Positions 1-28,363 of a stretch of 64,000 nt of DNA are shown piece by piece. Below the pieces are notes generated by a model. The model saw only the letters and a list, made by a program, of their open reading frames with translations. It was not told the DNA's origin and made no database searches. Each line of letters starts with the position of its first letter. The stretch's first letter is position 1. Location of the stretch: contig JAIXOU010000110.1 in the NCBI GenBank assembly GCA_027486585.1, forward strand, positions 1 to 64,000, given 5' to 3'. The position numbers and the translations under genes are program-made. Origin of the DNA: Verrucomicrobiaceae bacterium. GTDB lineage: Bacteria; Verrucomicrobiota; Verrucomicrobiia; Verrucomicrobiales; Verrucomicrobiaceae.

Positions 1-165
1 GATGGTTTACAGTTGTTTACGATGGTTTACAGTTGTTTACGATGGTTTACAGTTGTTTACGATGGTTTACAGTTGTTTACGATGGTTGACGATAGTTTGT
101 CCAAGGCAGTGATTTTCCGAGCAGCCACTGTAAACAACAGTCAACAACCGTAAACCACAGTAAAC
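1..165. repeat. Inverted array of 10-bp-phased GTTTAC repeats
   Basis: The left arm (1-80) is four exact copies of a 20-bp unit made of two related decamers. It places GTTTAC at 5, 15, 25 and so on to 75, followed by degenerate copies at 85 and 95. The right arm carries the reverse complement: GTAAAC at 130, GTCAAC at 140, and GTAAAC at 150 and 160, again exactly 10 bp apart. The middle (about 101-129) is non-repetitive. The array begins at the window edge, so it may extend further left. It lies just past the stop of the minus-strand vWA gene, so read-through RNA could fold into a long hairpin. A terminator or a helically phased protein-binding array are both possible; the function is unknown. 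Confidence 0.9.
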
Positions 166-176
166 GGTTTGGTCTT

Positions 177-1325
177 CTACTTAAACTCAATGGCCTTCTT
201 GGCTGCCTGCTCACGCACAGCTTGGACGATGACTTTATCCAGAGTCGCGACTTCGCCGCTTTCTTTGGCTTTTTCGGCGACGAACTTTTGGCGCTCTTCG
301 TTGAGCTTTCTGATATCGCTTTGGATCTTGGCACGGTCAGTAGCTTTTTGATCAATGAAGGCAGCTCGGGCAGCTGGTGCCATGGGTTTGAGTTCGGCTG
401 GCAGTTCTTCATCACTGATGGATTCCAGCTTAACGCCGTCTTTCTTGGTCGCATCCACGAGGTCCCAGGTGCTGTTGGAATAGTTGCTTGAGGTCTTCGT
501 CAATGCGCGCTGCACGGCGGCTCCGGCTTTACCATAACGGCCTGCGTTTGCGTCTTGGGCGACCTGATTGGAGCGTCCACGCGTGCCGTCTTTCCCATAG
601 GTGATATAAGTGTTATTGAGCTCGATGCTTAGCCGTGTGATTTCCTTATCCTGTGGTGCTTCGATGTGCACAACTGCCTTGTCCTGATCAATGGTTAAGA
701 AGCGTCCTTCCGCCAATGCGGCCCCGGTCCGCCAGCCGCCGTTTTCACCTTCGGCATGATTGCCGCAGTGAATGGTATTGATGACGACGCCCTTTTGAAT
801 CGCGGCTTTGCAGGCATCGTTGGCGCTGATCGGACCTTGTGTGAAGGGTTCATTGCCAGCGATGAAGATGACTTTATAAGTCTTGCTGTTGTTATCCCAA
901 GAAAGCTTATCCAGAGCCTCCCGAATCACGGCTCCGCAGTATTCGTCTCCGCCATTGGTGGTGAGTTTGAAGAGCTGCTCTGAGACCTGATCCAGATCAC
1001 GCGTGAAGGGCAGGACTTGGCGGATGTAGTTCGTGCCGATGCTGAGATTCGTGTTGCCGTATTCATACAGGGCGACTTGGACGACGGGCGTTTTATCGCC
1101 CTGTTTAGCATCGTTGAACTCATTGACGATCTTCCAAAGCTGGCTTTTCGCCTGCTCGATCAGGCCGTCCATGCTGCTGCTGGTGTCTAGCAGGATGGCG
1201 ATCTGCACCAGCGCTTCATTGTCGCGGATGGCTTTATCTTGGGTGGGTTCAGCCGCTGGCAGCAGGGCTGCACCGGTGGTGAAACTGAAGGTGGTGAGGC
1301 AGAGGAGTTGGGTAAGTGCTTTCAT
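177..1325 (-). CDS. Exported von Willebrand factor A domain protein
   Basis: A 382-aa protein with an N-terminal signal peptide (hydrophobic stretch about residues 4-25) followed directly by a vWA domain. The MIDAS metal motif DTSSS is at residues 47-51 (D47, S49, S51). The rest of the domain reads like other bacterial exported vWA proteins (the FIAGNEPF segment in the middle). The C-terminal third is charged, K/E/R-rich and probably helical. vWA domains usually bind protein ligands through a divalent metal; the partner here is unknown. ATG at 1325 is chosen over the in-frame GTG at 1343 because a GGGGG stretch sits just upstream and the signal peptide starts cleanly there. Confidence 0.85.
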   Translation of the reverse strand: MKALTQLLCLTTFSFTTGAALLPAAEPTQDKAIRDNEALVQIAILLDTSSSMDGLIEQAKSQLWKIVNEFNDAKQGDKTPVVQVALYEYGNTNLSIGTNYIRQVLPFTRDLDQVSEQLFKLTTNGGDEYCGAVIREALDKLSWDNNSKTYKVIFIAGNEPFTQGPISANDACKAAIQKGVVINTIHCGNHAEGENGGWRTGAALAEGRFLTIDQDKAVVHIEAPQDKEITRLSIELNNTYITYGKDGTRGRSNQVAQDANAGRYGKAGAAVQRALTKTSSNYSNSTWDLVDATKKDGVKLESISDEELPAELKPMAPAARAAFIDQKATDRAKIQSDIRKLNEERQKFVAEKAKESGEVATLDKVIVQAVREQAAKKAIEFK

Positions 1326-1394
1326 AGCACCCCCAGTCTGCACGCCCTCTTTTCAGCCGTCTGTAAAGCGGCTGTAAAATGATTGAAGCCGCCG

Positions 1395-11372: not shown

Positions 11373-13312
11373 GGTTTGTCCTGATACTGGTCAAAGACGC
11401 GGTTCACTTCGCCAAAGCTGCGGCCTTCACGCATAGCTTTGAGGGTTTCGGCTTTGATGTCTTCGTCGATCCACCAGACGAAGGAATCCGTGGCTTCGCG
11501 GGTCATTTTGCAGTTCCCATCCTTCGGCCAGCGCATCCAGCGCCAATGGAAGTAGCGGTAGAGGGGCACCTCCCAGGTGGGGATTTCGGAGGCTAGCATT
11601 TGAGATTTTTCCTCGATGAGCCAGCTCAGGCGCTGCACTTCATTTTCGTTGGGAGCTGCGCGTTGCTGGTCGATGAGTTTATCGAGCTCAGGGTCTGCGG
11701 TCTGGGTGAAGTTGTTGGTGTCAGGTTTGATTTTGCGAGTGCCATCGGCCGCTTTTTCATAAGCGTTGTCGCTGTGATAAAACTGCCAGAACTCAGGATA
11801 GGGCGGCTCAGCCCCGAATCCGGCGAGAACGAGATCGTGTTTCTTTTCAGCCGCCTTTTTGAAGAGTTGGGTGAAGTCCAGCGACTCGATCTGCAAATCC
11901 ACACCGGCTTTGAGTGCACCTTCTTTCCAGATCAGACCCGCCTGGCCGTAAAGCGGCATGTTGCCTAGGGTGAGTGTGAAGCTGAGACGCTTGCCTTCCG
12001 CATTGGTGAGCACGCCGTCCTTGCCTGGTTTGGTAAATCCGGCCTTGGTGAAAAACTCGCGCGCCTTGGCTGGATCAAAGGTGCGGGCCTTCAGATTTGG
12101 GCTGGTGAAACGGCCAAAACCCGCAAAGGCACTCTGCATCCTCACGGCGTCGTCACGCAGCACGACGGAGATGACTTTTTCAATGTCAAAAGCGTGGTGC
12201 AGGCCTTCACGAATGTCGAGGTTATCGAGCAAAGGACGGCTTTGATTGATGAAGATGCAGCGCGGGATGCGGGGATATTGATTGTAGAAAGAGTAGCGCT
12301 CAATGTAGCCATTCAGCAGCTCGGGCACATCACCACGATCATACCAAAAGTTTGGTGGCAGAAGCTGGGCGCTGCTGGAAAAGAGGTCGAGCTTGCCCTG
12401 GCGGAAGAGTTCAAAAGCTTTGTCCATGGTGCTGACTAGGCGATAGACGAGCCGATCAGCGTTGTAGCGATGGCAGTAGTATTTCTTGTCCTTGGCCCAC
12501 CAGTTCTTCACGCGTGTGAGCGTGATGCTGCGGCCAAACTTGATGTCTTCTGGATTGATGTCGTAAGCCCCCGTAGTGGGCATTTTTCGCCACTGGTAAC
12601 GAGCCGGAAAGTCATCGGTGAACTCGCTGAAGAAGTGCCGTGGCAACGGTGGCATGTTGGCGATGAGTAGTGGATCAGGATTCACCTTCGTCATCGTGAT
12701 GGAGAAAGTGAGGTCGTCATACTTCGTAATGGCGGCGAACTCTTTCGGGAAGTAATCGGCCTTGTAAGGGTCCTTAGCATGTTTCGAGGTCGAGACGTAA
12801 AACGTCATGAAGAAGTCGTCCGCCTTCACCTTAACGCCGTCCGAATAGCTGGCGTCAGGGTCGATCTTGTAGAAGGTCGTTTTGCGATCCGCGCTGATGG
12901 CCCACTCCTTGGCGATGCAAGGGATCCATTTGTCCTCATTCGGATGCCGATTCAGCATGGCCATCTCGATGTTGTCGTAGTGCTCGCTGCGGAAGGTGTT
13001 ACTGCCCTCGGGTCCGATGAAGCGCAGCGTGGGCGGGAAGTTCGGCATGTCATAATTAAAGGTGCCACCCTTCTTCGCCTCAGGATCTCCGACTTCAGGG
13101 TAATCGAGCCCCGTTTCCCATTTCAAATCGGCGGGCAAATTGGCGAGCGTCTTAAACTGATATAGATTCGGCTTCGCCTTATACTCGGCCTCGACTTCGG
13201 CTGCGTTGTCGTACGGCGGGAAGCGGTCGTCGGCGTGGGCGGAGGGCAGAGTGCAGAGAGCGGAGAGAAAAACCGCTGACGCAAAAAAGCAAAAAAGTAG
13301 TTCGCGTCTCAT
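11369..13312 (-). CDS. yejA: Periplasmic peptide-binding protein, YejA-like (SBP family 5)
   Basis: A 647-aa exported solute-binding protein. The signal peptide is about residues 1-28 (hydrophobic [14 protein letters not shown], cleavage near AHA-DD). The mature part follows the YejA pattern: [20 protein letters not shown], then the long family 5 binding fold ([26 protein letters not shown]). The relatives in E. coli bind peptides and microcin C. The start at 13312 is set by a very strong ribosome-binding site, AAGGAGGT, 6 nt upstream. The frame opens earlier (13351), but that part lies inside the PIN gene. The start overlaps the PIN stop (ATGA) and the stop overlaps the next ATPase start (ATGA). 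Confidence 0.9.
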
Positions 13313-27445: not shown

Positions 27446-28363
27446 ATGAAACCAATCCCACGTAACGTCCTCTTGTTTCTAGCCTTGGCCTCTTATCAAG
27501 GGGCGGCCTTCGCCCAAGACAATCCCCCAGGCCCCAAACCACCTGAGTCAGAAGTCCGGCCTGCCGAGCCTCAACGCGGCAATCCACAGCGCTCGGATGC
27601 AGAGGTTGAAAAACCACGTGGCCAAGAGCCACAACGCCCTACGAATCCAGAGCGCGGACGCGGAGAATCTCCCCAAAGTGGTAAGCGTGAAGGGGACCGT
27701 GGCCAGCATCAAAATCATCCCGATCAGCATCGTGGTCCGCACATGAATCAGGATGGCAGAGAGCGCCGTGGCCCAGGTCCACAAGAAGGCCACATGCAGC
27801 GCAAAGGCCCATCTGATGAACAATGTCCGCAATCAGGTCCGCATGATGGAGATCACGGTCCGCGTATGCATCAGGATGGCAGAGAGCATCGAGGCCCAGG
27901 TCCACAAGAAGGCCACATGCAGCGAAAAGGCCCACCTGATGGACAACGTCCACAATCAGGTCCGCGTGATGGAGATCACGGTCCGCGTATGCATCATGAT
28001 GGCAGAGAGCATCGTGGCCCAGGTCCACAAGAAGGCCACATGCAGCACAAAGGTCCACCTGACGCTAGTCGTAACCATCATGCAAAAGGTCAAGGCCCTC
28101 AGCATGGCAGACAACGTGGGATGAAGCATCGGCAGCGCGGAGAACAGAACTTCGGTCAGCATCGTCCTATGCCACCCCAGTTCCAAGGACAACAGCACCC
28201 GCACTTTCAGCCGCCGCAACAAGGACGCCGCTCCAAGCATTCTCGTCATGGCCGTGGACCACAAGGTCAGTCATCCATGAGGCAAGGCCCATCACCACAA
28301 GGCAACCGCCCACAGGCACCGATGCCTAATCACCAAGATCGTCGCAGTGGTCGTGAGGCCTGA
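27446..28363 (+). CDS. Exported His/Pro/Gln/Gly-rich low-complexity repeat protein
   Basis: A 305-aa protein. The signal peptide is MKPIPRNVLLFLALASYQGAA, with cleavage near AFA-QD. Everything after it is low complexity: Pro, Gln, Gly, Arg, His, Asp. A 41-residue unit (with DGREHRGPGPQEGHMQ) is repeated about 2.7 times from residue 96. The many His and Asp/His-Gly pairs could bind divalent metals; this is inference. I do not recognise a family. The frame opens at 27296, but only ATG 27446 gives a signal peptide. It is followed by a strong terminator. Confidence 0.75.
   Translation: MKPIPRNVLLFLALASYQGAAFAQDNPPGPKPPESEVRPAEPQRGNPQRSDAEVEKPRGQEPQRPTNPERGRGESPQSGKREGDRGQHQNHPDQHRGPHMNQDGRERRGPGPQEGHMQRKGPSDEQCPQSGPHDGDHGPRMHQDGREHRGPGPQEGHMQRKGPPDGQRPQSGPRDGDHGPRMHHDGREHRGPGPQEGHMQHKGPPDASRNHHAKGQGPQHGRQRGMKHRQRGEQNFGQHRPMPPQFQGQQHPHFQPPQQGRRSKHSRHGRGPQGQSSMRQGPSPQGNRPQAPMPNHQDRRSGREA
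27731..28060 (+). repeat. 123-bp in-frame tandem repeat, about 2.7 copies
   Basis: Copies start at 27731, 27854 and 27977, exactly 123 bp (41 codons) apart; the third breaks off near 28060. The copies are nearly identical at the nucleotide level, including silent positions, which suggests recent duplication or gene conversion. They encode the His-rich repeats of the surrounding gene. Confidence 0.92.

What the first reader, a model, noticed from the sequence alone, without database searches (positions are those of the whole stretch)
1..165. Inverted array of decamers phased at 10 bp
GTTTAC repeats sit exactly every 10 bp on the left arm (5 to 75, with degenerate copies to 95). Their reverse complements sit at 130, 140, 150 and 160. 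The helical phasing suits a protein that binds one face of DNA; the inverted arms also fold as RNA. The array may continue past the window start.
Basis: seen in the sequence. Interest (0 to 1): 0.55.

Follow-up and report, generated by a model that had tools for sequence, protein, structure and literature searches.

The report
Mobile-element relic with inverted decamer ends
The repeat at the start of this window looks like a gene-less, locally expanded copy of a small mobile element whose complete forms carry a little four-helix protein gene (S23) between inverted arrays of short repeats and settle in the gaps between neighbouring genes.

Summary
In detail: GTTTAC decamers in exact 10-bp phase (5-94), a 31-bp spacer and four inverted decamers (126-165). 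The array runs on into contig C26, up to a response-regulator gene. It is one of about 19 such places in this genome; 36 of 48 genomes of the genus have them. The standard element has two inverted arms of four GTTKRCRRTN decamers plus GTTT. The relative G061 has four decamers where the window has at least nine or ten: an expansion by a 20-bp unit.

The key link: in 18 of 21 genus genomes carrying one S23 (PF05635) subfamily, these arms flank that gene on both sides. Other S23 genes, in the genus and in other phyla, have inverted tandem repeats of their own (units of 7 to 10 bp). Related Nostoc plasmids show S23 cassettes present or absent exactly between a stop and a start codon, plus S23-less copies of the same repeat.

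I read the window array as an S23-less member of an IVS-like mobile family. Sister families with 7- and 8-bp units argue against helical phasing as the point. How these elements move, and whether S23 binds the repeats, is inferred.

The parts
1..94 (+). expanded left arm: GTTTAC/GTTGAC decamers (nine whole units from 5 to 94; 1-4 belong to a unit cut by the contig end); continues on contig C26
95..125 (.). spacer between the arms, beginning with the GTTT that ends the arm and the inner motif GTTTGTCCAA
126..165 (-). right arm: four decamers in inverted orientation (GTTTACTGTG GTTTACGGTT GTTGACTGTT GTTTACAGTG)
177..1343 (-). neighbouring gene, VWA-domain protein of 388 aa; its stop codon lies 11 bp from the element (context, not part of the element)

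Best explanation
The array is an S23-less, MITE-like member of a family of small mobile elements whose ends are inverted arrays of about four decamers. Complete members carry between those arms a gene for an S23-type four-helix-bundle protein (PF05635, the protein of 23S rRNA intervening sequences). [quoted passage not shown] One arm has since grown by slippage of a 20-bp double unit. Shown: the dispersed family and its anatomy; presence or absence at this orthologous gap; an S23 gene between inverted arms of the same decamer in the same genome; the same layout with other units around other S23 genes; S23 cassettes present or absent at exact stop/start junctions in named Nostoc plasmids. Inferred: that this decamer family itself moved; that S23 acts in mobility or binds the repeats (as DNA or as the RNA stem); that the stem is cut like that of an IVS, so that insertion inside an operon is tolerated.
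For: About 19 places in the own genome, 69 pattern hits against 0 for the reversed control; 36 of 48 genus genomes. Arm length mode four decamers (36 of 61 arms in G005, 18 of 36 in G061, 14 of 35 in G000). Intact four-decamer element at the same gap in G061; the gap has the response regulator but no element in 18 of 29 other VWA loci read, and the element in 4. One S23 subfamily in 21 of 48 genomes, all with arrays, in none of the 12 array-free ones; decamer arms on both sides in 18 of the 21. Inverted flanks of S23 genes beat every same-locus control pair in 28 of 30 loci of the genus, 18 of 27 of other phyla and 9 of 15 named plasmid loci; controls reach score 15 in 0 of 23 and 3 of 23, S23 in 27 of 30 and 17 of 27. 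Filled and empty stop/start junctions in ten related plasmid regions, with an S23-less and an S23-bearing element of the same heptamer in one plasmid. Two cassettes fold with S23 in the loop of the arm stem.
Against: The window copy has no S23 gene, and no S23 was found in the window. 15 array-carrying genomes lack the S23 subfamily, so arrays persist without it or use another factor. No target-site duplication was established for the decamer family and no filled/empty pair between close strains: all 13 G061 loci that could be compared have the element in both genomes. 9 of 27 S23 loci of other phyla and 6 of 15 plasmid loci do not exceed all their controls. The S23 cassette of the genus follows the same upstream gene in the loci read, so its presence there may be old vertical inheritance. 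No experiment shows movement.
Confidence: 0.7

Rival explanations
1. A helically phased operator: a protein binds successive decamers on one face of the DNA and controls the response-regulator gene and similar neighbours.
For: Exact 10-bp phase; arms lie 4 to 20 bp from start codons in many cases; arms stay recognisable at orthologous gaps while spacers diverge (L281 against L155); variable positions of the two arms look independent, as for separate binding sites.
Against: The same layout occurs with 7-, 8- and 9-bp units; adjacent genes show no common theme by eye; 18 of 29 other VWA loci have the response regulator without any array; spacing between arms is not helical.
Confidence: 0.1
2. 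An RNA element with a host function: the arms make a hairpin between cistrons that controls translation, decay or processing of the operon mRNA, with no mobile past of importance.
For: Stable folds; place between stop and start in co-directional genes; comparable TAACTGA heptamer arrays before start codons were proposed to act in translational control (PMC4679880, abstract and passages).
Against: No covariation between arms in 12 elements; no Rfam family; absent from the same gap in most relatives; the S23 gene between such arms and the empty sites of Nostoc plasmids fit insertion better.
Confidence: 0.12
3. Ordinary short-repeat slippage that happened to build decamer arrays, with no element behind them.
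For: The window arm is a 20-bp-unit expansion relative to G061; one orthologous pair differs by exactly one decamer (L261 against L161); other arrays are expanded in G024, G013 and G019.
Against: Slippage does not explain dozens of dispersed copies with two inverted arms of usually four units, recurring end motifs, or the S23 gene between such arms.
Confidence: 0.06

Closest known systems
23S rRNA intervening sequences (IVS), e.g. of Coxiella burnetii (PMC4990558; abstract and passages seen)
   Same: S23 gene in the loop of a stem made by terminal inverted repeats; tandem heptamers of variable number upstream of the S23 start in Coxiella; described there as a selfish element with suggested past mobility. 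Complete members of the present family have the S23 gene between inverted arms and fold the same way.
   Different: The present elements lie between protein genes, not in rRNA; their arms are tandem arrays; the window copy lacks S23; RNase III cleavage is untested.
MITEs and small intergenic repeats such as ERIC or NEMIS (recalled, no call)
   Same: Short, gene-less, dispersed, inverted ends, between genes and inside operons.
   Different: Ends are tandem decamers; the gene-bearing relative encodes a four-helix protein and no transposase; no target duplication established.
Intergenic short tandem repeats: cyanobacterial STRR (recalled) and TAACTGA arrays of Beggiatoaceae (PMC4679880; abstract and passages seen)
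   Same: Degenerate short tandem units in gaps, often just before start codons, copy number changing by whole units.
   Different: No S23 or four-helix gene is mentioned in that text, and nearly all sets there are direct repeats; here arms are inverted pairs.
bAvd of diversity-generating retroelements (PMC10053308; passages seen)
   Same: Homology of Avd and PF05635 noted there; one Nostoc S23 hits PF22296 bAvd at 7.8e-08, below its cut-off.
   Different: No reverse transcriptase or template/variable repeat pair was seen or looked for.

Membership tests
S23 cassette family with inverted short tandem repeats (as defined in this report) | two inverted arms of tandem units of one length | tested here: met
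   window 5-94 and 126-165; intact form in G061
S23 cassette family with inverted short tandem repeats (as defined in this report) | S23 (PF05635) gene between the arms | tested here: not met
   none in the window copy; present between decamer arms at another locus of the same genome. The window copy is therefore called a derivative, not a complete member.
S23 cassette family with inverted short tandem repeats (as defined in this report) | same repeat unit as an S23-bearing copy in the same genome | tested here: met
   GTTKAC decamers at C40 around S23 and in the window
23S rRNA intervening sequence (IVS) | located in a helix of rRNA | tested here: not met
   lies between VWA and response-regulator genes
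23S rRNA intervening sequence (IVS) | excision by RNase III | not testable with these tools
   needs RNA end mapping
MITE | short, no gene, terminal inverted repeats, dispersed copies | tested here: met
MITE | target-site duplication | tested here: inconclusive
   looked for by eye; none evident. One Nostoc S23 cassette doubles ATG
MITE | cognate transposase with the same ends | tested here: not met
   the gene found between such arms is S23, not a transposase; transposases elsewhere were not searched
REP/BIME with RAYT | REP hairpin with a RAYT (Y1) transposase in the genome | not tested
   no search for Y1 transposases was run
Helically phased operator | unit length set by the helical turn | tested here: not met
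   sister elements use 7-, 8- and 9-bp units

The most novel reading that the evidence does not exclude
S23 four-helix-bundle genes define a widespread class of transposase-free mobile elements. Each is bounded by inverted arrays of its own 7- to 10-bp repeat, inserts cleanly between stop and start codons of operon neighbours, and sheds S23-less copies that make up scattered intergenic short-repeat families of bacteria. The rRNA IVS would be one branch of this class, and the window array an S23-less copy from a 10-bp branch.
Probability: 0.6. Interest if true: 0.9.

Novelty: new variant of a known kind. Interest (0 to 1): 0.76.

Why it matters
Short tandem repeats between genes of Cyanobacteria, Beggiatoaceae and Bacteroidetes have been described without a known origin, and S23/IVS proteins without a clear function. 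Tying the two together gives both a testable explanation: the repeats are the ends of S23 cassettes or their S23-less copies. It also opens the old question of how IVS elements move to experiment, with filled and empty sites in culturable Nostoc strains. The ten searches of the held library found no report of this link; most subscription papers are not held there.

Tried and rejected
Rfam on six element loci gave three hits, all far below the gathering scores. Covariation between the arms: none in 12 elements, so selection on an RNA stem is not shown. S23 presence alone does not explain arrays: PF05635 is in 47 of 48 genus genomes, array-free ones included; only one subfamily tracks the arrays, and the hypergeometric value of 2.5e-4 ignores phylogeny. 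ATG within 25 nt outside an end: 38 of 44 elements, but 56% of random segments, so this statistic is weak. The first tandem score was less sensitive: 18 of 30 upstream and 17 of 30 downstream flanks in the top 5% of background, 13 of 30 both. The 20 genomes were chosen by me by phylum name, so they are not a random sample; 7 of them have no S23. Rows dropped: L407, L408 and L418 (short or broken S23 or flanks); L438 (no annotation). Of 30 plasmid records with a match 16 were fetched first and 15 tested. Loci overlap, so the counts must not be added. Structure prediction was not run.

Full report
What is there. The window starts at the end of a contig, inside a tandem array. Eight GTTTAC units stand 10 bp apart (5 to 75), then GTTGAC at 85 and GTTTGT at 95; inverted units stand at 130, 140 (GTCAAC), 150 and 160. 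Contig C26 ends with the same 87 bases and then holds a response-regulator gene and a histidine kinase. In the close relative G061 the locus is intact: VWA gene, 11 bp, element, 13 bp, response regulator, and both arms have four decamers. The window strain therefore expanded one arm by a 20-bp unit to at least nine or ten decamers.

A family. The pattern GTTKRCRRTNGTTKRCRRTNGTTK (up to 1 mismatch) has 69 hits in the own genome at about 19 places, and none for the reversed control. A slightly stricter form hits 36 of 48 genomes of the genus; the reversed control gave 0 to 7 hits per genome. G005 has a contig of the same length (89,883 bases), with a hit at the same position, as Brevifollis gellanilyticus NBRC 108608, so the window most likely comes from the GTDB genus that holds this verrucomicrobium; this is inference. 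Arms are most often exactly four decamers followed by GTTT, and are often preceded by GCC or GAA. Two-arm elements measure 59 to 175 bp. The unit is mostly GTT[TG][AG]C[AG][AG]T[TGC].

Position. Full two-arm elements lie in gaps between genes, often pointing the same way, with few bases to the neighbouring genes (13 and 14 in L149, 15 and 10 in L156, 11 and 13 in L275, 6 and 4 in L302). The simple ORF caller used there also reports many spurious ORFs across arrays, most of all in G005. The flanking genes show no common theme by eye. Among 29 other VWA loci read, 4 have the element (two of them, G022 and G065, with identical gaps), 1 a degenerate arm, 18 the response regulator with no element, 5 another neighbour, and G024 a deletion. 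By eye the G057 copy lies in the opposite orientation to that of G061. 13 of 19 fetched G061 regions align to a fetched G000 locus, and all 13 have the element in both; the other 6 were not tested. So the decamer family is old and mostly vertically inherited between these two, and its own movement is not shown.

RNA or DNA. Nine stretches fold with z between -3.4 and -6.3; the arms pair at least partly in eight, and the ninth (L272) was cut before its second arm. In 12 full two-arm elements the variable positions of the two arms agree no better than shuffled pairs. Pairing follows from the shared unit and is not shown to be selected.

The S23 link. One two-arm structure in the own genome holds a gene between its arms: a 125-aa S23/four-helix-bundle protein (TIGR02436; PDB 2gsc at 1.2e-20). 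PF05635 matches occur in 47 of 48 genus genomes, but the subfamily of this gene is in 21, all of which have arrays, and in none of the 12 array-free ones. In 18 of the 21 loci decamer arms lie on both sides in inverted orientation, in 1 on one side; in 2 the detector found none, though by eye their flanks hold diverged inverted repeats. The 15 array-carrying genomes without the subfamily count against a strict dependence.

Generality. The other S23 genes of the genus are flanked by inverted tandem repeats too, with different units: 7-mers such as GTTTMAA or GTTGATG, 8-mers such as GAGACAAT. In 28 of 30 loci the match between the upstream flank and the reversed downstream flank beats every control pair in the same locus, and the best period is the same on both sides in 30 of 30. 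For 27 S23 loci from other phyla the figures are 18 and 22, and for 15 named plasmid loci 9 and 11. Controls reach a score of 15 in 0 of 23 (VWA) and 3 of 23 (other ORFs) cases; S23 does in 27 of 30 and 17 of 27. Repeat and S23 similarity go together within the genus (Mantel r 0.84, 0 of 5000 permutations; orthologous loci contribute to this) and weakly across phyla (r 0.15, 22 of 5000). Because units of 7, 8 and 9 bp serve the same place, a helical turn is not the point.

Insertion seen. Ten related plasmid regions (nine Nostoc, one Halotia) share an operon. At one junction five have only GTT or ATT between stop and start, three hold an S23 cassette bounded by inverted AGTCAGG-type heptamers, and two hold another small stretch. 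At the next junction eight have a 1-bp overlap or 2 to 4 bp, and one holds a different S23 cassette bounded by inverted AAAAGGG-type heptamers, with ATG doubled; the Halotia region was not comparable there. A third junction holds S23-less inverted elements of the AGTCAGG type in L441 and L442, and L441 also has the S23 cassette with that repeat. This is the relation I propose between the window element and the S23 locus at C40. Two cassettes fold with S23 in the loop of the arm stem, and the three S23 proteins tested hit PF05635 at 1.4e-29 or better.

Known ground. The Coxiella IVS paper describes an S23 gene in the loop of a stem of terminal inverted repeats, excision by RNase III, tandem heptamers of variable number upstream of S23, and an unsettled origin with earlier suggestions of transposition (PMC4990558, abstract and passages). 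MacGregor 2015 describes TAACTGA arrays just before start codons and proposes translational control; the terms S23 and four-helix do not occur in its text (PMC4679880, abstract and passages). A 2023 survey names 23S rRNA IVP in a legend of CRISPR-linked proteins (PMC10910872, passages); S23 genes inside cas operons may be why. The ten library searches found no report of inverted short repeats around S23 genes in general.

Verdict. The window array is best read as an S23-less member of an S23-cassette family with one expanded arm. The link of the window copy to that family rests on the shared decamer, the inverted four-unit layout in G061 and the position; S23 itself is absent, so it is a derivative and not a complete member. 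Movement of this decamer family, the role of S23 and RNase III processing remain inference.

Noticed in passing
L146:781-890 (contig C26): The gap between the response regulator and the histidine kinase also holds inverted short repeats (AATGACGAA... and ...TTCGTCATT), possibly a second element with another unit in the same operon.
   Followed up: no
window 13237-13267: A period-7 tract (GGGCGGAGGGCAGAGTGCAGAGAGCGGAGAG), perhaps the remains of another short-repeat array.
   Followed up: no
window 27734-28062: Tandem repeat of a 123-bp unit, 2.7 copies, 91% matches.
   Followed up: no
L154, L155, L159, L165 (own genome): A hairpin-like stretch GCTGAAGGGYGCTRCGCRCC lies where two decamers of an arm would be, in phase with the rest.
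   Followed up: partly
G005 loci, e.g. L293, L301, L307: Many one-armed decamer arrays are followed by a second short-repeat block of the form RATCCGASTS, within larger composite intergenic repeats.
   Followed up: no
L425, L430, L426 (cyanobacterial plasmids): S23 genes sit inside CRISPR-cas operons: between cas6 and cas4 in two plasmids and between cas10 and a cmr3-type gene in one.
   Followed up: no
L169 (G024): The VWA gene is cut after about residue 366 and joined to the start of the response regulator; its tail and the gap are missing.
   Followed up: partly
G024:C762:6434-6584, G013:C237:2099-2239, G019:C5, C16 and C20: Decamer arrays expanded to many perfect copies at other loci in other genomes.
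   Followed up: no
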